A DNA stretch of 64,000 nt from an uncultured SAR86 cluster bacterium (GTDB lineage: Bacteria; Pseudomonadota; Gammaproteobacteria; Magnimaribacterales; D2472): contig CACIJE010000001.1 in assembly GCA_902586925.1 (NCBI GenBank), forward strand, positions 204,104 to 268,103, read 5' to 3'. Within the stretch, counting starts at the first letter, position 1. Each line of letters begins with the position of its first letter. The position numbers and the translations under genes were made by a program. Below are positions 42,536 to 48,715 of this stretch, in pieces. The notes under the pieces were generated by a model. It worked only from the letters and a program-made list of their open reading frames with translations, did not search any database and was not told where the DNA came from.

Positions 42536-42931
42536 ATGAAATCACCAAAATTTTTTAGAACAAGCATCATGTTTTTAGTTGACTCATGGAGAGTCGTCAT
42601 GAACGTTAAATATAATCCTTTGAAGTATGTTCCTGATCCTAGTATTCAGACCTACTTTATGGTCGTACTATTTACAATTTGGAGCGCGTTTTTTGGATTG
42701 ATAGCAATATTTTGGCTTGGATTTATTGGGTATAATATTCTTACAAGTGTCATTGTTCATCTGTCTATCATTATTCCAATAGCTTTCACAAATGCAGTTT
42801 TTGTTGATGCTGAAAGAGACGGTGAGAATTGGTTAAAAGAATGGCGAGAAGAACAATCAAGATTCAAATTGCTTAAAAATAGGCTTAAAAGAAAGAATTT
42901 GGTCTTATGGGATCCAAATAAAGAAGCTTAA
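42536..42931 (+). CDS. Two-span inner-membrane protein, unknown function
   Basis: 131 aa with two strong hydrophobic helices (about 40-63 and 68-90) between basic ends; the C-terminal part ERDGENWLKEWREEQ is charged and likely helical in the cytoplasm. I do not recognise the family. It lies just left of the putative attachment repeat, so before the element inserted it would have been followed within about 35 bp by the 3' end of tRNA-Ala. It is probably ordinary chromosomal sequence. Confidence 0.65.
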   Translation: MKSPKFFRTSIMFLVDSWRVVMNVKYNPLKYVPDPSIQTYFMVVLFTIWSAFFGLIAIFWLGFIGYNILTSVIVHLSIIIPIAFTNAVFVDAERDGENWLKEWREEQSRFKLLKNRLKRKNLVLWDPNKEA

Positions 42932-42963
42932 TTAAGGTTTAAAAGCAAAGAAGCGATCATTGA

Positions 42964-42995
42964 TGGTGGAGCTATTGGTTCAAAACTGGAACCAA
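42964..42995. other. Left attachment site with hairpin
   Basis: The 11-bp core (42964-42974) equals the 3' end of tRNA-Ala on the opposite strand. Directly inside the element comes a perfect 7-bp inverted repeat TTGGTTC/GAACCAA around a 7-base loop (42975-42995), standing where the tRNA T-arm would be. It could be a recombinase-binding site or a terminator-like fold. Confidence 0.65.
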
Positions 42996-43023
42996 CTAGT
43001 CCCCTACTTCAAGAGATTAGGCT

Positions 43024-43524
43024 ATGTCCTTGAAGAATAGTCAAAACATAGAAAATCTCAAGTATGAATATATCTACGGTAGTGTTCATGGTGATGGCAG
43101 AAGAAGCTTTAAGTCATTAGATAACTTAATAAAAGAACATCAATTAGCAGCGTCAACTATCTACAGGCGTTCGTCTAAAGAATTATGGAAAGATCAAAGA
43201 ATATCTTTTAGAGCTGAGCTAAGTGAGGAGATTAAGAAAGCCAAGAAGCATGATATTGTTAACGATATCCAGTTTATTCAGAACAAAGCTACAAACGGCC
43301 TCTCTCTTATCCTAGATAAGGCTATAGATTATTTGGAAATGGATAAATCTATTAATCCTAGAGGCTTATATAACTTAACTCAAACTATTGTTGCTTGTAG
43401 CAGGAACCTTCCAGCAATAGCTGAGAGTGATGAGGATGATAATGAAGGGTTCACCAGAGCAATGGAGATGTTAGATCAGATAGCTGACTTTAAGAGAGAT
43501 ACACCTGGCTTTAATTTTGAGTAG
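43024..43524 (+). CDS. Small-terminase-subunit-like phage protein
   Basis: 166 aa. The N-terminal half has the pattern of phage small terminase subunits: YIYGSVHGDGRRSFKSLDNL, then a helix-turn-helix with AASTIYRRSSKELWKDQR, followed by a long helix and an acidic C-terminus (ESDEDDNEG). Small terminases bind phage DNA pac sites; satellites such as PICIs use their own to redirect packaging. No large terminase or structural gene lies near. The start overlaps, in the joined circular form, the last 17 bp of the recombinase frame. Its 3' end overlaps the convergent next gene by 14 bp. Confidence 0.6.
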   Translation: MSLKNSQNIENLKYEYIYGSVHGDGRRSFKSLDNLIKEHQLAASTIYRRSSKELWKDQRISFRAELSEEIKKAKKHDIVNDIQFIQNKATNGLSLILDKAIDYLEMDKSINPRGLYNLTQTIVACSRNLPAIAESDEDDNEGFTRAMEMLDQIADFKRDTPGFNFE

Positions 43525-44260
43525 ATTTGGTCTCTAAACATTCAATAAATGCAGCTTTTGTCTCAAGATAATTTTCGTCGTTAACATTTTTTTTTAACTG
43601 AAACAATTTACTATTGTATTTTACATATTTGTTTCCATTACCAAGATACTCATTACAACTTTGTACCATCCTTCTTATGTTTATTTGTGCTTGAAGTTTT
43701 CTTACTTCATCAAGAGCATCAAGTCGTCTTAACTCCTCTTCTAATTTTAGCTGTTCAAGAATAATCAAATCTGTCTCCGTTTTTAATTCAGTAAGAGATT
43801 TGCTCTTAATATCATCTTTAGTAGTTGAATCTTTGGGTTGAGGGATTAATGAGTTACTTTCTGCCCTTTCACCATATTGAATAATATTAACTAATGGGAT
43901 GAGAAAAATAATTATTAAAGAGACAGTGTAAATCCATTTTTTATTATTAACCTTATTTTTAATATATCTATAGAGAAATAACGGTACAAAAATTATGCTC
44001 ATCCAAAGCGAACTTCCAAGGTAGGCTATAGACATTTTACCGAAATGATAAAGGTCTAAAAACCAAACTTTAACGATTAGCTCCGAGTAAACCCAAAGCC
44101 AGGCTAAACCTAAAATATTTGCAACTACAATTGATAATAGAGCAACAGCTAAAACATTTAGGGCGTATATAAAGCCTGAGCTATTTTTAGAAATTAAAAC
44201 CTTTGCTACATCAACAACAATAAAAGAGCATAAAAATCCAACAAAAGTATAAAGAGCCAT
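43511..44260 (-). CDS. Element-borne multi-span membrane protein with coiled-coil C-terminus
   Basis: 249 aa: about four membrane segments in the first 130 residues, then a charged coiled-coil stretch (ILEQLKLEEELRRLDALDEVRKL read in pieces near 168-190) and a short C-terminal domain with two cysteines (SCNEYL and IECLE). I do not recognise the family. It is the last gene of a five-gene leftward run with gaps of 0-6 bp or small overlaps. A role at the host membrane, such as exclusion of other phages, would fit a satellite but is a guess. Confidence 0.6.
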   Translation of the reverse strand: MALYTFVGFLCSFIVVDVAKVLISKNSSGFIYALNVLAVALLSIVVANILGLAWLWVYSELIVKVWFLDLYHFGKMSIAYLGSSLWMSIIFVPLFLYRYIKNKVNNKKWIYTVSLIIIFLIPLVNIIQYGERAESNSLIPQPKDSTTKDDIKSKSLTELKTETDLIILEQLKLEEELRRLDALDEVRKLQAQINIRRMVQSCNEYLGNGNKYVKYNSKLFQLKKNVNDENYLETKAAFIECLETKSTQN

Positions 44261-44263
44261 AAT

Positions 44264-44584
44264 TTATTCCGAACACTCCATTTGATATTGAGACCTCTTG
44301 GAAGCTATTCTGGGAGGTAAAGATGCATTCTTCATTAACCATTGATGATCTTCTTTTGTAAAATTATCAAAATACTTGTGTCCTAAGCAATTGCAATATT
44401 CTTTGATTGATCTTATAACATCTGTGGATTGAGAATTTAGGCCCATATTTGTATATTGAGTCTGGATAGTTGGAATGCAGGTTCCAGAGTGCCCCTTAAT
44501 TAATGCTGATTTTGTTTTTTGATCAATTGATTGAGAACATGATGAGATTATTAAAAGAAAGGTTAGGCTTAGCAACTTACTCAT
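44264..44584 (-). CDS. Element-borne small lipoprotein
   Basis: 106 aa starting MSKLLSLTFLLIISSCSQ: a signal peptide with lipobox ISSC, so the mature protein would begin with the lipidated cysteine C16. Four further cysteines (CIPT, CNCL, MECSE) suggest disulfides in the periplasm. I chose ATG 44584, which gives a clean lipoprotein signal and overlaps the previous gene by 8 bp; an ATG 18 bp upstream would add six residues. Family not recognised. Confidence 0.6.
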   Translation of the reverse strand: MSKLLSLTFLLIISSCSQSIDQKTKSALIKGHSGTCIPTIQTQYTNMGLNSQSTDVIRSIKEYCNCLGHKYFDNFTKEDHQWLMKNASLPPRIASKRSQYQMECSE

Positions 44585-45191
44585 TGGGATCGTTAACCTC
44601 AATATTATGTTTTAGTAAAAGATATGCTTTAAATAATTTATATATTTCTATTACTTCTAGATTTGTAGTTTTAAGATCAATAGATTCGCTTGCTTCAAAT
44701 TCTTTGTAGCAATGATGATTAAAAAAATCAAACATTGTTAAGTGGACTTTTGATCTTGGGGTTCTAGTTACATCTTTAAAGATACTACTATTCTTATCAT
44801 TTTTAGTAACTATAGTTTTATCAATATTCCGAGTGTTTATAGTATCTTGAATAAATTGTCTTTCTTTTTTCACTGCCATATCTCTTTCAGATTTTATTTG
44901 TTTCTCAGATTTACTGAGAGGTGTGCTTTTTGAATTATTACCATCTAAAACAGATCTACCAAAAGTTGGCGTTTTAACTTCAGCATTAGTTAGAAGAGTT
45001 GCAATAATTCCAATCAAGCCACCCCAATACAAAATAAAAAGGCTATTGTCTGGACTAAATGAATACTTTAAATTAAGAAATAAAAAAAATGGAGGAAATC
45101 CATTAATTAAATTTATAGGTATTTTTACTATTTCCAAAACAACGCATAGTGCAAATGCCCATATTCCATAATATTGAATTTTTTCAATCAT
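44577..45191 (-). CDS. Element-borne membrane protein, unknown function
   Basis: 204 aa with two or three N-terminal membrane segments (about 8-28, 30-45 and 50-67), then a polar, Lys/Ser-rich linker and a soluble C-terminal part with MFDFFNHHCYKEF and a predicted helix. Not recognised. It is preceded by the 45198-45803 gene by 6 bp and overlaps the lipoprotein gene by 8 bp, which supports one transcript. Confidence 0.55.
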   Translation of the reverse strand: MIEKIQYYGIWAFALCVVLEIVKIPINLINGFPPFFLFLNLKYSFSPDNSLFILYWGGLIGIIATLLTNAEVKTPTFGRSVLDGNNSKSTPLSKSEKQIKSERDMAVKKERQFIQDTINTRNIDKTIVTKNDKNSSIFKDVTRTPRSKVHLTMFDFFNHHCYKEFEASESIDLKTTNLEVIEIYKLFKAYLLLKHNIEVNDPNE

Positions 45192-45197
45192 TGATTT

Positions 45198-45803
45198 TTA
45201 TTGCATCCTATCAGAGAGAGTTTTGTTATTACTATCAATATATCTAATCCGACTTATCACCTTATCCCAATCATTTGGCATATTCATACATGAGGCAGTT
45301 AAATTCCTTACAGGACCTAAAAATGTTGGCTTATCTACTACTTGTATTTCGTAGTCGTTTTTATAATATCTTCTCATCGCAGTTATTTTCCAAGGATCAT
45401 CAAACATTAAAGAATTTTCACTTAATGAGCTATTTAAATCTCCAGGGCTTTTATAGTTAATATTCAGACCCGACGATTGATCAGAATCTCTATAGTAAAA
45501 GTTATTAACTAAAATTAAATTTTTCTTTTTTGCTCTTACTAAAAATTGATACATGGTATCTGTACCATAATCAGTAAACTTAAATTCTATTTCAAATTCA
45601 TCTCCAATATTCATACCATCCATATACGAAGAATATGACTTTGCTAAACCATCCTCTGTTTCTAAAATATGTTGCCCTGTTATTTTGCATTTAACTGAAA
45701 AGTTATCGTAAATATCATTAATCTCATCGGAATATGCAAGAGGAAATAAAAACATAATAAATAAAAATATTTGCATTTTTTTAGAGTTACAAACTTTTTT
45801 CAT
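45198..45803 (-). CDS. Element-borne secreted protein, unknown function
   Basis: 201 aa with a basic start and signal peptide (about 10-25, ending PLAYSDE). The mature part looks mostly beta: FSVKCKITGQ, FEIEFKFTDYG, and two cysteines 39 and 173 or so could pair. Its layout (signal, VKCKITG, later PVRNLTASC) resembles that of the upstream neighbour, which also begins with a C-containing beta strand after the signal, so the two may be distant paralogues. The family is not recognised. ATG directly follows the neighbour's stop. Confidence 0.55.
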   Translation of the reverse strand: MKKVCNSKKMQIFLFIMFLFPLAYSDEINDIYDNFSVKCKITGQHILETEDGLAKSYSSYMDGMNIGDEFEIEFKFTDYGTDTMYQFLVRAKKKNLILVNNFYYRDSDQSSGLNINYKSPGDLNSSLSENSLMFDDPWKITAMRRYYKNDYEIQVVDKPTFLGPVRNLTASCMNMPNDWDKVISRIRYIDSNNKTLSDRMQ

Positions 45804-46280
45804 TTAAAATTTCTTTTTAGAGACATCTAAAACAGAGCAATCACCAGAAAAGTTTTTTGGAGATGCCATGGCTTTATATTCCATTTTTCCTGTAACTCTG
45901 GAAATAGTTACTTTAGGTTTATTTATAAAGTTAATTTTAAATTCAGCTTTAATCTCTGTATCTGTTACAGATATATTTTTTAATTCAAATTTATCTATTT
46001 TCTTTCCACCTATTGGAGGTCTCATTACACTTGGCAATTGAATAAAACCATTATCAAAGCCATCATCAAGATGAAAAATAACCTCTGCAGAAGCCTGCCT
46101 ATCTGTTGCAGTTACTGTTGAGCCAGATCCATAAGCAGAGGTGCCCTGTCCATATACTTGTGCAGAGGATGAGCTTACTTTACTATCGGTTACTGTTGCC
46201 TCCCCTGAACAGACAAGATCTAAGTCTTCTGAAAAACTAATTGGTGCATATAATATTATTAGTACGAGTATTTTTTTCAT
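45804..46280 (-). CDS. Element-borne secreted protein, unknown function
   Basis: 158 aa with a short signal peptide (about 1-17, ending ISFSED). The mature chain starts DLVCSGEATVTDSK, has a Ser/Gly/Thr-rich stretch (about 35-62) and ends in beta-like segments containing ISRVTGKMEYK and CSVLDVS; the two cysteines probably form a disulfide. Not recognised. It is the first gene of the leftward run, and its promoter must lie in the 160-bp gap shared with the rightward recombinase unit. Confidence 0.55.
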   Translation of the reverse strand: MKKILVLIILYAPISFSEDLDLVCSGEATVTDSKVSSSSAQVYGQGTSAYGSGSTVTATDRQASAEVIFHLDDGFDNGFIQLPSVMRPPIGGKKIDKFELKNISVTDTEIKAEFKINFINKPKVTISRVTGKMEYKAMASPKNFSGDCSVLDVSKKKF

Positions 46281-46381
46281 TATCTAATTCTGCCACAACA
46301 GTTTGATTTAATAAAATTTCTATAATAAATGATAGAAAAGTGATAAAAAACTTAGTAATATTAAGTTAATACAAACCGCAG

Positions 46382-46399
46382 TTAATGCAGACGCATTAA
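46382..46399. promoter_or_regulatory. Inverted repeat in the element's central divergent region
   Basis: A perfect 7-bp inverted repeat TTAATGC/GCATTAA with a 4-base spacer lies in the 160-bp gap between the leftward cargo run and the rightward 40-codon ORF/recombinase unit. It is the most symmetrical sequence in the gap. It could be an operator for both units or an RNA hairpin in the recombinase leader; there is no T-run, so a terminator is less likely. Confidence 0.4.
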
Positions 46400-46440
46400 G
46401 CTTTATTTGATAGATTTCAATCTGCTTTTATAGGAGACGT

Positions 46441-46563
46441 ATGTCTATGGAAGCTTATATGAAATATCTAGAAAATCTTGATTTATCAGATTCTGATAAA
46501 CTTTTAATCATTAATCAGTTATTAGAACTAAGTGAGAGGTTGTTTGATGAATACTATAAATAA
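46441..46563 (+). CDS. 40-residue ORF coupled to the serine recombinase
   Basis: A 40-aa reading frame starting MSMEAYMKYLENLDLSDSD, acidic and helical, with a strong ribosome-binding site TAGGAGACGT directly before the ATG. Its last 17 bp overlap the recombinase start, so translation is probably coupled. I do not recognise it. Its place suggests a recombinase partner or expression control element, for instance a directionality factor, but nothing in the sequence proves this. Confidence 0.55.
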   Translation: MSMEAYMKYLENLDLSDSDKLLIINQLLELSERLFDEYYK

Positions 46564-48109
46564 AGAAGGTGTTATATACACAAGAGTTTCATCATTGAAA
46601 CAAGTCACTCAAGGCAGCGGGTTAAACACACAGCACTCAGCCTGTCTGAAGTATGCAAAAGAAAACAATATTAATGTTATTAAAACTTTTCAAGATGCAG
46701 CTATGTCTGGCAAAACTATTGATAGGCCAGCACTATTTGAAATGATCCACTTCATTAAAAAAAGAAAACGTGAAACCTTTGTAATATTTGATGATATTTC
46801 AAGGCTATCAAGAAATACTGAGGAATATTACTTTATCAAAGATAAGATTAGGAGATATGGCGGCTATCTTCTCTCATTAAAAGATGATCTTGAGTCTACT
46901 GATCCCATAAGCCGCCTTAAAGAAAATATGGTAGTTGCTTTTGCAGACTATGATAGAGAAAACAATTTACTAAGGGTTAAAACAAGGATGCGAGAAAAAC
47001 TTCAAGCTGGGTATTGGTTATTTAAGGCTCCTATTGGCATGAGATTGGTAGATAAGATTTTATATCCAGATAATACGAATTCAGTTTTAATTAAAAAGAT
47101 TTATGAAGATTATGCTATAGGCAGATACATCACTTATGAGAGTATTAAATATTCTAAAGAGGCGCAGCAATTAATTAATCCATATATCAATAAGCCATAT
47201 CAGCTTAGTAATGATTTAATGAAAAAAATTCTTACCAATAAACTTTATATAGGAATCATTGATTATCCTAAATGGGGTTTTAAAGAAATTAATGCCATTC
47301 ATGAGGGATTTATAGAAAAAGAATTGTTTTATAAAGTCCAACAAAGGATTAAATCTAAAAAAAGAAAAAAATATAGTGTTGTTGGAATTGAGCACTTCCC
47401 TCTTAAAGGCGATATTGAATGTGGTTCATGTTCAAGTAAATTACTAGGTAATTATTCTACGGGCAGAGATAAAAAGAAATATCCTTATTACAGATGCGAT
47501 TCATCCAGAGATATATGTGATATTAAACCTAAAAATATCCAAAGAGATGTTATACATCATGAATTTATTGGGCTTTTAAAGAAAGCTCGCATTAATAAAG
47601 ATGTGTTAAAACTAGCTGATAAGATTATGGATGATACTTTTAATAAGAATTCTAATCACCTAAGCAGTATCAAAAACCACAATCAAATTAAAATAGATGA
47701 ATTGGCTAAAAGAAAAAGGGCTCAGTTAGAAAAATTCATTAAGGCATCCAATCCTTCTTTGATAAATGCTTTAGAAAAAGAGATAGAGTCTATTGATAGG
47801 CAAATAAGGGTTTTAGAGCAGGTACAGTACTCTGAAGATGATGTAATAAAGTTTAAACTGCAAGGAAAAACTCTATTAAGCCATCCAGATAGAGCCTGGC
47901 AACAAGCAGACTCAAATACGAAAAAGATCATCTTTAATTTCATTTTTGAAGAAAATCTGAAAGTTATAGATGGCAAAATTGGAAACACCAAATATAGCTT
48001 ACCCTATAGGGTTTTGAAGGGAAAAAAATCTTCAAACAAAGGATTGGTGGAGCTACGCGGGATCGAACCGCGGACCCCCTGCTTGCAAAGCAGGTGCTCT
48101 CCCAGCTGA
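46547..48109 (+). CDS. Large serine recombinase (site-specific integrase), C-terminus encoded by the tRNA
   Basis: 520 aa. Resolvase domain at 9-150 with the catalytic serine S15 in YTRVSS and FDDISRLSRN; a recombinase domain follows (about 160-270), a zinc ribbon with C292, C295, C317, C324, and a helical segment (about 340-420). The frame then runs through the element end into tRNA-Ala, so the last 17 residues (RGIEPRTPCLQ onward) are read from the antisense of the tRNA and are unlikely to be native. ATG 46547 has GAGAGG 7 bases upstream; GTG 46532 is less likely. Confidence 0.9.
   Translation: MNTINKEGVIYTRVSSLKQVTQGSGLNTQHSACLKYAKENNINVIKTFQDAAMSGKTIDRPALFEMIHFIKKRKRETFVIFDDISRLSRNTEEYYFIKDKIRRYGGYLLSLKDDLESTDPISRLKENMVVAFADYDRENNLLRVKTRMREKLQAGYWLFKAPIGMRLVDKILYPDNTNSVLIKKIYEDYAIGRYITYESIKYSKEAQQLINPYINKPYQLSNDLMKKILTNKLYIGIIDYPKWGFKEINAIHEGFIEKELFYKVQQRIKSKKRKKYSVVGIEHFPLKGDIECGSCSSKLLGNYSTGRDKKKYPYYRCDSSRDICDIKPKNIQRDVIHHEFIGLLKKARINKDVLKLADKIMDDTFNKNSNHLSSIKNHNQIKIDELAKRKRAQLEKFIKASNPSLINALEKEIESIDRQIRVLEQVQYSEDDVIKFKLQGKTLLSHPDRAWQQADSNTKKIIFNFIFEENLKVIDGKIGNTKYSLPYRVLKGKKSSNKGLVELRGIEPRTPCLQSRCSPS
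48045..48055. other. Right attachment repeat within tRNA-Ala
   Basis: TGGTGGAGCTA here is the reverse complement of the tRNA-Ala 3' end (acceptor strand plus CCA) and repeats exactly at the left end of the element. Because the right copy lies in an intact tRNA, the element regenerated the gene on insertion. Confidence 0.75.
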
Positions 48110-48120
48110 GCTATAGCCCC
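48045..48120 (-). tRNA. tRNA-Ala (anticodon TGC)
   Basis: 76 nt on the minus strand, starting GGGGCTATAGCTCAGC and ending in an encoded CCA. The anticodon loop CTTTGCAAG-type segment gives TGC; the D-arm, T-arm (CGCGG, TTCGATC, CCGCG) and the G-U pair near the acceptor end typical of alanine tRNAs are all present. It closely matches E. coli alanine tRNA. The 3' end faces the integrated element. Confidence 0.97.
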
Positions 48121-48166: not shown

Positions 48167-48715
48167 TTAATCTAAATCTTTTTTGTTGTTGATTGGTGCA
48201 AACTTTGAAGACTGCATCGACGAAGACAGAGGATTTTTACTACTTCTTCCAGCAGCGCTTGATTGAACTTTTTCTCTATATAAATTAAATACTTCGAATA
48301 ATAAATAAAACCAGAAGCCATTTATAACTGGTTCTACTATCGCGTCAATAGCAGCAAGATTTAGAGGAGCTCCAGTAAGAAGTCTATTACATGTCATAGC
48401 AATTAAGATGTGTCCAATCGTATAGATTACAGCTAAATAAATTCCGATTTTATTCGGGTTTAAAAACTTTAAGCTTAAAGAATTAATTTTCTCCATGATT
48501 CGTTTTTTGAAAACCACTAATAATAAGTAAAACCAAAAACCGTTAATTATTGGCTCAATGAAAGCGTCTGCTGCAGCCATGTCTAGAGTAGCGCCTGTAA
48601 TAATTCTATTACAAGTTATTGCTATTAAAATATGTCCAATTGTGTAAATTAAAGCAAGGACTAAATTATCATATTTAAATACTTGAGTATCATCATATTT
48701 TAAATAATTTTTCAT
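48167..48715 (-). CDS. DUF2061 membrane protein with internal duplication
   Basis: 182 aa containing two copies of the DUF2061 domain: near 20-70 and 92-145, each with IYTIGHILIA, a TCNR motif, then IEP(I)INGFWFYLL or VEPVINGFWFYLL. Each copy has two membrane segments. A Ser/Lys-rich cytoplasmic tail follows. Function of DUF2061 is unknown. Two-copy forms exist in the family, and the strong similarity of the repeats is obvious by eye. It is read leftward, with the TonB receptor's terminator just upstream. Confidence 0.85.
   Translation of the reverse strand: MKNYLKYDDTQVFKYDNLVLALIYTIGHILIAITCNRIITGATLDMAAADAFIEPIINGFWFYLLLVVFKKRIMEKINSLSLKFLNPNKIGIYLAVIYTIGHILIAMTCNRLLTGAPLNLAAIDAIVEPVINGFWFYLLFEVFNLYREKVQSSAAGRSSKNPLSSSMQSSKFAPINNKKDLD

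What the first reader, a model, noticed from the sequence alone, without database searches (positions are those of the whole stretch)
43511..46280. Five-gene operon of unrecognised membrane, lipoprotein and secreted proteins as satellite cargo
Seen: five leftward genes with 0-6 bp gaps or short overlaps. In order of transcription they are two secreted beta-rich proteins, a membrane protein, a lipoprotein with four more cysteines, and a membrane protein with a coiled coil. Every product is directed to the envelope. Known: temperate phages and satellites often carry superinfection-exclusion or host-modification genes at the envelope. Inference: this operon may be a new envelope-located defence or exclusion system, or a release aid.
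Basis: inference. Interest (0 to 1): 0.6.

Follow-up and report, generated by a model that had tools for sequence, protein, structure and literature searches.

The report
Envelope cargo of SAR86 mobile element
Five unrecognised envelope genes in an uncultured ocean bacterium of the SAR86 group are the exchangeable cargo of a small mobile element that inserts beside a tRNA gene and whose relatives carry quite different genes, even a histidine-synthesis pathway, in other SAR86 genomes.

Summary
In detail: five leftward ORFs, spaced 0, 6, -8 and 3 bp. They are cargo of a sharply bounded 5.08-kb integrated element (42964-48044) in a SAR86-order genome. Its core is a 39-aa ORF, a large serine recombinase running into tRNA-Ala(TGC), and a terminase-small-subunit-like gene (43024-43524, moderate support). 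An 11-bp core occurs at both borders and nowhere else in the window; a same-genus genome has the empty site. The same left end marks 23 places in 19 of 203 order genomes (own included); in 13 islands tRNA-Ala lies inside it, always with its 3' end facing the element, and cargo differs (LOG-type, cytochrome b561, phosphatases, esterase, his operon, large lipoproteins). attP appears to lie inside the recombinase gene: the left end continues its reading frame (0 of 500 shuffles match the synonymous excess), so integration would swap the enzyme's tail for antisense-tRNA peptide and unlink it from the TerS-like gene. In 107 family genomes the five-gene set does not recur; relatives of two members sit in other islands. 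Defence or exclusion is possible (about 0.35) but untested; no known defence family matched. 'Satellite' is plausible, unproven. New variant of cargo-carrying integrative elements.

The parts
42964..42974 (+). left att core TGGTGGAGCTA (outer border of the element)
   Evidence: the core occurs exactly twice in the 64-kb window, both strands searched, 0 of 100 shuffles reach two; border shared by 23 places in 19 of 203 order genomes, own included
42975..43040 (+). sequence that continues the recombinase reading frame when the ends are joined (tail LVQNWNQLVPYFKRLGYVLEE, stop TAG)
   Evidence: joined frame open, 524 aa; synonymous fraction 0.38 in this frame against 0.18 sd 0.06 in column shuffles, 0 of 500 reach it; stop count not decisive, 55 of 500 shuffles as low; natural joined, decayed copy in L127
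43024..43524 (+). 166-aa HTH + long-helix protein, terminase-small-subunit-like; starts inside the recombinase tail
   Evidence: model pLDDT 67, Foldseek viral hits incl. named TerS at E 0.02, 6ejq TerS Z 6.4 rmsd 13.6 over 118; relatives or fragments in 9 of 107 family genomes, own included
43511..44260 (-). cargo gene 5: four-TM membrane protein with charged, 2-Cys tail (249 aa)
   Evidence: N-terminal 142 aa 62% identical to a gene in the tRNA-Phe island of G049 that has a different tail
44264..44584 (-). cargo gene 4: lipoprotein with four further Cys
   Evidence: no relative in 107 family genomes
44577..45191 (-). cargo gene 3: two-TM protein with soluble C-terminal part (204 aa)
   Evidence: only in own genome, 1 of 107
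45198..45803 (-). cargo gene 2: exported protein modelled as a beta barrel (201 aa)
   Evidence: relatives in G033 35%, G093 32%, G074 23%; model and weak barrel matches
45804..46280 (-). cargo gene 1: small exported protein, two Cys (158 aa)
   Evidence: no relative in 107 family genomes
46441..46563 (+). 39-aa ORF overlapping the recombinase start
   Evidence: similar ORF next to the recombinase of G088
46547..48109 (+). large serine recombinase, integrated form; last residues read antisense through tRNA-Ala
   Evidence: PF00239 4.7e-28, PF07508 5e-7, PF13408 8.6e-6, phrog_95 integrase 1.2e-62; 53% relative in G088
48045..48055 (+). right att core TGGTGGAGCTA, at the 3' end of tRNA-Ala
48045..48120 (-). 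tRNA-Ala(TGC), integration site
   Evidence: empty site with the same flanks in G078:C2

Best explanation
The five genes are the exchangeable cargo of a 5.08-kb integrative element of SAR86. SHOWN: borders, empty site, recurrence of the core module or its end with other cargo, and reading-frame continuity across the joined ends. INFERRED mechanism: the serine recombinase recombines an 11-bp core at the 3' end of tRNA-Ala with attP, which lies inside its own gene. In the circle the 39-aa ORF, recombinase and TerS-like gene form one overlapping operon, and the recombinase ends ...VEL-LVQNWNQLVPYFKRLGYVLEE. Integration replaces that tail by antisense-tRNA peptide and parts the TerS-like gene from the recombinase promoter, so the TerS-like protein would be made mainly from the excised circle, where it could steer the DNA into a helper phage's capsid. 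The cargo slot lies between the TerS-like stop and about 46300. The five cargo products would form an envelope set: two membrane proteins, one lipoprotein, two exported proteins. My commitment on their job is an accessory envelope trait carried for the element's benefit; entry exclusion or defence is the single likeliest form (about 0.35), a surface or nutrient trait close behind (0.3).
For: Core only at 42964 and 48045. Left end in 19 of 203 genomes; tRNA-Ala inside in 13 islands, its 3' end facing the element in 13 of 13. Empty site G078:C2. At the same katG/TonB-receptor site: five-gene element (window), LOG-type gene (G042), homocysteine methyltransferase (G041), nothing (G078, G054, G061). 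Recombinase + TerS-like pair with other cargo in G088. Reading-frame test 0 of 500 shuffles; naturally joined copy L127. TerS-like fold. Relatives of genes 5 and 2 lie near tRNA-Phe (G049, G074), beside a tyrosine integrase (G033) or after a glmS-like gene (G093); phrog_4756-type genes occur in just 2 of 107 genomes, G033 and G049. Two copies are in SCGC assemblies (single cells, recalled), so not metagenome chimaeras.
Against: Excision, packaging and expression are unseen. TerS identity rests on a pLDDT-67 model from four close sequences; no Pfam or PHROG match; PDB Foldseek E 0.4 at best; most rows of the second look are bare long helices. No close viral-contig, phage or plasmid match where searched. 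The joined frame's low stop count is not unusual (55 of 500 shuffles), and the L127 joined copy is frameshifted. In G008 and G153 (2 of 24 ends) no tRNA-Ala was found in 7.4 and 8.8 kb read inside the end; 8 more ends run into a contig edge. Cargo function has no direct evidence.
Confidence: 0.8

Rival explanations
1. The operon is a superinfection-exclusion or other anti-phage envelope system, protecting host and element from non-helper phages, as PICMI UP2 does in Vibrio.
For: Genes 2 and 5 belong to families found here only in a few SAR86-family genomes (4 and 2 of 107, own included), mostly in islands; the gene-2 profile hit only the own genome among 369 class genomes. A satellite carrying a defence gene against non-helper phages is described in PMC10803314 (passages).
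Against: No PADLOC match; sibling cargo is metabolic or surface; the set does not recur as a unit in 107 genomes.
Confidence: 0.35
2. The operon is a surface or nutrient trait (binding or uptake of a ligand by barrel-type exported proteins with membrane partners), selected like the other cargo.
For: Cargo in the same slot elsewhere: PhoX, PhoD, esterase, cytochrome b561, Big_9 lipoprotein, his operon; gene 2 model resembles calycin-type barrels, best Z 7.2, rmsd 3.4, 107 aligned.
Against: Z under 8 may be a common arrangement only; no transporter, receptor or enzyme among the five by Pfam.
Confidence: 0.3
3. The element is not a phage satellite but a plain integrative element; the 43024-43524 protein is an excision or directionality factor, not a TerS.
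For: It would overlap the recombinase in the circle, like PICMI iolg, which is needed for excision (PMC10803314, passages); no Pfam or PHROG terminase match; no viral-contig trace.
Against: Foldseek places it with viral proteins, two named TerS at E 0.02, and G20c TerS in the second look.
Confidence: 0.4
4. The left-end reading frame is accidental; conservation reflects the att site's DNA only.
For: att DNA is bound by the recombinase, so conservation without coding is expected; the low stop count is matched by 55 of 500 shuffles.
Against: Synonymous share 0.38 in this frame against at most 0.28 in the five others and 0 of 500 shuffles; in frame with the recombinase in window, G088, G087, G091.
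Confidence: 0.1

Closest known systems
Tycheposons (passages of PMC10872708, and PMC11389934; the original paper is not held)
   Same: cargo-carrying elements of marine or freshwater streamlined bacteria with a tRNA at the border and metabolic cargo
   Different: here a large serine recombinase, not a tyrosine one; tRNA-Ala; attP apparently inside the recombinase gene
PICMI satellites of Vibrionaceae (PMC10803314, passages)
   Same: small (6.1 kb for the type element), marine, few genes, a gene overlapping int, variable slot with defence cargo
   Different: no AlpA, no primase, not at fis; helper unknown; TerS-like gene present
VEIMEs (named in PMC10803314 and PMC11389934, passages)
   Same: integrative elements of marine bacteria found in virions
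   Different: no virion evidence here
Archaeal 'suicidal' SSV-type integrases (PMC8371274, passages)
   Same: att site inside the integrase gene, so integration alters the gene
   Different: those are tyrosine recombinases split into inactive parts; here a bacterial serine recombinase would change only its last about 20 residues and stays open
Genomic islands at tRNA genes in general (Islander; PMC4383910, abstract in a search listing)
   Same: tRNA gene restored by the element, borders marked by repeats
   Different: those are said to be catalysed by tyrosine integrases; here a serine recombinase and an 11-bp core shared by two tRNA-Ala genes (TGC and GGC)

Membership tests
Tycheposon | tRNA gene at the border, cargo-carrying, 4-200 kb (as worded in PMC10872708) | tested here: met
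   tRNA-Ala at border, 5.08 kb, cargo exchanged
Tycheposon | tyrosine recombinase | tested here: not met
   resolvase, recombinase and zinc-ribbon Pfam domains, serine type
PICMI | integrase, AlpA, primase and insertion at fis | tested here: not met
   no AlpA or primase among the seven element proteins scanned (the 39-aa ORF was not scanned); site is tRNA-Ala
PICI-type TerS satellite | own terminase small subunit | tested here: inconclusive
   TerS-like fold only; no profile match
PICI-type TerS satellite | replication and capsid-remodelling genes | tested here: not met
   none recognised by Pfam, PHROGs or NCBIfam among the seven element proteins
VEIME / phage satellite | packaged in virions, needs a helper | not testable with these tools
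   indirect, limited scans of viral contigs and phage records negative
Suicidal (SSV-type) integrase | att site within the integrase gene | tested here: met
   frame runs through the core into the left end, by sequence only
Suicidal (SSV-type) integrase | tyrosine recombinase split into inactive parts | tested here: not met
   serine recombinase, frame stays open to 48109
Known anti-phage defence system | match to a described defence protein | tested here: not met
   0 of 8 proteins match PADLOC-DB 2.0.0 at E up to 1
Superinfection exclusion | blocks phage entry when expressed | not testable with these tools
   needs an experiment

The most novel reading that the evidence does not exclude
A new family of SAR86 mobile elements in which a bacterial serine recombinase carries its own attP inside its gene: integration swaps a conserved C-terminal tail for antisense-tRNA peptide and uncouples a TerS-like packaging gene, so the integrated or excised state itself switches the element's behaviour. 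The family moves whole traits (here an unknown five-protein envelope system that may block phages; elsewhere histidine synthesis or phosphatases) between SAR86 cells through phage particles.
Probability: 0.4. Interest if true: 0.8.

Novelty: new variant of a known kind. Interest (0 to 1): 0.6.

Why it matters
SAR86 is among the commonest surface-ocean bacteria (recalled), with small genomes, and how it gains genes is little known. A precisely delimited element family with readable ends gives a marker (a 30-bp end) for finding islands and their cargo, ties trait variation such as histidine synthesis (hisG in 53 of 107 family genomes, 7 of them of the window's genus, not in its own genome) in at least two genomes to a vehicle, and offers a testable serine-recombinase switch. 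For the operon itself it turns 'unrecognised envelope genes' into a defined cargo set, two members of which belong to families seen in other islands.

Tried and rejected
Known families for the five: Pfam, PHROGs, PADLOC, NCBIfam gave nothing convincing; the weak PHROG hit of gene 4 (phrog_22687, E 0.0065 over 24 residues, function unknown) was not pursued. Phage records: no match for genes 5, 2, 1 and the TerS-like protein; plasmid records: none for gene 5 and the TerS-like protein; genes 1 and 2 were not searched in plasmids, genes 3 and 4 in neither. Viral contigs: eight scans, which find close relatives or exact patterns only; nothing but generic serine integrases at 21-27% identity. PDB by sequence: nothing below E 0.3. 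Only two proteins could be folded; genes 1, 3, 4 and 5 were not. Promoter and terminator scan: 26 promoter-like sites against 27.4 in shuffles, 2 terminator-like against 2.1, uninformative. Rejected: an integron-like or MITE-like reading of the repeated end, because it lies in frame with the recombinase and opposite a tRNA-Ala. Rejected as chance: end matches in G157 and G159 (20 bp, query 71-90, not the border) and a match across the gene 5/gene 4 joint of the query in G028 (E 0.036). Most of the 81 of 107 genomes with a 'recombinase' match show only tRNA-Ala read antisense. In the reading-frame test G041 was dropped (degraded core) and identical rows merged: 22 ends used of 23, 20 distinct rows. 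The cargo relatives' other element type (tyrosine integrase, phrog_4756) was not traced further; its protein has 28-29% relatives in 4 Vibrio phage records. Papers: a serine integrase with attP inside its gene was sought; one gave the archaeal review, 99 and 129 nothing on it. SAR86 islands were sought; the listings showed no paper on this element. Absence in print is not claimed beyond these searches.
Full report
OBSERVATION. Five minus-strand ORFs lie at 43511-46280 as described, spaced 0, 6, -8 and 3 bp if the lipoprotein starts at its ATG, 44584. Features: hydrophobic N-terminus in gene 1, a weaker one in gene 2 (under the hydropathy cut-off, read by eye), lipobox-like stretch and four further Cys in gene 4, two membrane stretches in gene 3, four in gene 5. 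None of the five matches Pfam, PADLOC or NCBIfam convincingly.

THE ELEMENT. To the right is a large serine recombinase whose ORF runs into tRNA-Ala(TGC), 48045-48120. The 11 bp TGGTGGAGCTA at the tRNA's 3' end occur just once more in the 64-kb window, at 42964. Relatives or fragments of the plus-strand gene at 43024-43524 were found in 9 of 107 family genomes, own included. In 6 of the 8 others (9 places) DNA similarity begins at window 42962-42964; G101 matched only in the 3' part and G063 not at DNA level. A 128-base probe of this end matched 21 of 203 order genomes; two of these (G157, G159) are 20-bp matches off the border, leaving 23 places in 19 genomes, own included, and a 24th end appears in G150:C19. 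The chromosome to the left, including the 131-aa gene 42536-42931 and katG, is followed directly by tRNA-Ala in same-genus genome G078:C2, which gives the empty site. G054, G061, G069 and G082 also have katG next to tRNA-Ala without insertion, and no 131-aa gene in the stretch read. The element is thus 42964-48044, about 5.08 kb, uncertain by the 11-bp core.

CARGO IS EXCHANGED. Of 24 ends, 14 (13 islands, window included; G053 has two ends in tandem) have tRNA-Ala 1.0-7.6 kb inside the end, with the tRNA 3' end facing the element in 13 of 13 islands; 8 ends reach a contig edge first (G042:C25, G104 twice, G087:C12, G090, G043, G150:C19 twice) and 2 (G008, G153) show no tRNA-Ala in 7.4 and 8.8 kb. 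G041's core is degraded. Cargo by Pfam, others by BLASTP clustering: PF03641 LOG-type (G042; name LOG recalled), cytochrome b561 (G044, clustered G045), homocysteine S-methyltransferase (G041), esterase (G098), SPFH protein (G078, clustered G053 and G150), PhoX, PhoD, glycosyltransferase and phosphoesterase (G078, clustered G053), a histidine operon (HisG, fused HisD and imidazoleglycerol-phosphate dehydratase, HisH-type amidotransferase, two His_biosynth proteins, HisIE-type, aminotransferase, HAD; Pfam on G065, clustered G062), a Big_9 lipoprotein (G088, clustered G091). The katG/TonB-receptor TGC site has three different contents or none in six genomes, though a 182-aa gene lies on the other side in G041 and G042. 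HisG is in 53 of 107 family genomes and not in the window's own. In a collection of named genomes the exact end pattern hit 14 loci: 10 titled SAR86, 2 'Gamma proteobacterium SCGC' (single cells, SAR86 by recall), 1 Rhodospirillales, 1 Proteobacteria. That the window is SAR86 follows from its kinship with these.

attP INSIDE THE RECOMBINASE GENE. Reading the recombinase through the core into the left end gives an open frame of 524 aa ending VEL-LVQNWNQLVPYFKRLGYVLEE, whose last codons contain the start of the 43024 gene. The tail is recognisable at the ends of other islands, with stops in G078:C11, G053 (both ends). Differences from the window by codon position are 42, 18 and 57 for positions 1, 2 and 3 over 22 other ends. 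Over 20 distinct rows the synonymous share is 0.38 in this frame, 0.11 and 0.16 in the other forward frames and 0.28 at most in the reverse ones; 0 of 500 column shuffles reach 0.38 (mean 0.18, sd 0.06), while the number of stops, 2, is matched or beaten by 55 of 500. Rows are related, so these are not plain probabilities. A 5.2-kb contig (L127) has recombinase tail, core, left end and 43024-type gene in a row, decayed by frameshift. That the integrated form ends in antisense-tRNA peptide is read directly from the window; that this changes activity or expression is inference.

THE 43024 GENE. The AlphaFold model (four sequences, mean pLDDT 67) has an HTH-like N-terminal part, a 55-residue helix and further helices. 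Foldseek in viral models: best E 2e-6 (unnamed, 26% identity), named TerS at E 0.021 and 0.024. PDB: phage protein 2ao9, E 0.4; second look, G20c TerS 6ejq Z 6.4 but rmsd 13.6 over 118, thirteenth among rows that are mostly long helices. I hold TerS at about 0.6. PICMI elements have a different int-overlapping gene needed for excision (PMC10803314, passages), so a directionality role is the rival.

THE FIVE GENES. A chimaeric query (genes 5, 4, 2, 1) and gene 3 alone were searched in 107 family genomes: a gene 5 relative in 1 other (G049, 62% over 142 residues, then an unlike tail), gene 2 relatives in 3 others (G033, G093, G074 at 35, 32 and 23%), none for genes 1, 3 and 4. In 369 class genomes, few of them SAR86, the gene-2 profile found only the own genome. 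The G049 and G074 copies lie near tRNA-Phe, G093's after a glmS-like gene (name from reading), G033's in a contig with a tyrosine integrase; phrog_4756-type genes occur in 2 of 107 genomes, G033 and G049. So two of the five belong to families that occur in unlike islands; in G033 and G049 they stand in similar runs of small membrane, lipoprotein and exported genes (by reading). Gene 2's model is a barrel weakly resembling calycins (best Z 7.2). Function remains inference: exclusion or defence 0.35, surface or nutrient trait 0.3, other 0.35.

KNOWN KINDS. Tycheposons share tRNA borders and metabolic cargo; those described in PMC10872708 (passages) have a tyrosine recombinase. PICMIs share small size and habitat but are defined by integrase, AlpA, primase and fis. 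[quoted passage not shown] Bacterial phage integrases whose 3' end overlaps attP are known to me from memory, so the tail swap is a variant rather than without precedent.

Noticed in passing
L096 1002-8380 (G065), L097 2126-9511 (G062): Histidine-synthesis operon, apparently complete, lies between tRNA-Ala(GGC) and the element's end; hisG is patchy, 53 of 107 family genomes, absent from the window's own genome.
   Followed up: partly
L022 1057-7133 (G063:C5): tRNA-Met island with haem-uptake-like genes (ABC transporter, TonB receptor; names from reading only) and a remnant of the 43024-type gene: a tRNA-Met branch of the family may exist.
   Followed up: partly
L062 6291-13684 (G049), L063 1-7952 (G033): Second mobile element type: a phrog_4756 protein, with a tyrosine integrase in G033 and near tRNA-Phe in G049, and long runs of small membrane, lipoprotein and exported genes.
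   Followed up: partly
L017 6880-7365 (G008): End and first half of the 43024-type gene abut a broken phosphate-permease-like gene (name from reading) with no tRNA-Ala near: deletion, secondary integration or assembly chimaera.
   Followed up: no
window 48167-48715: 182-aa membrane protein with a 149-nt internal direct repeat, 72%; its relative lies on the other side of the island in G041 and G042.
   Followed up: no
L105 3981-9932 (G054): tRNA-Ala(TGC) with part of katG and a neighbouring gene duplicated 3 kb apart.
   Followed up: no
L123, L127: SAR86-type element ends in contigs titled Rhodospirillales and 'Proteobacteria bacterium': mis-binned contigs or transfer to other hosts.
   Followed up: partly
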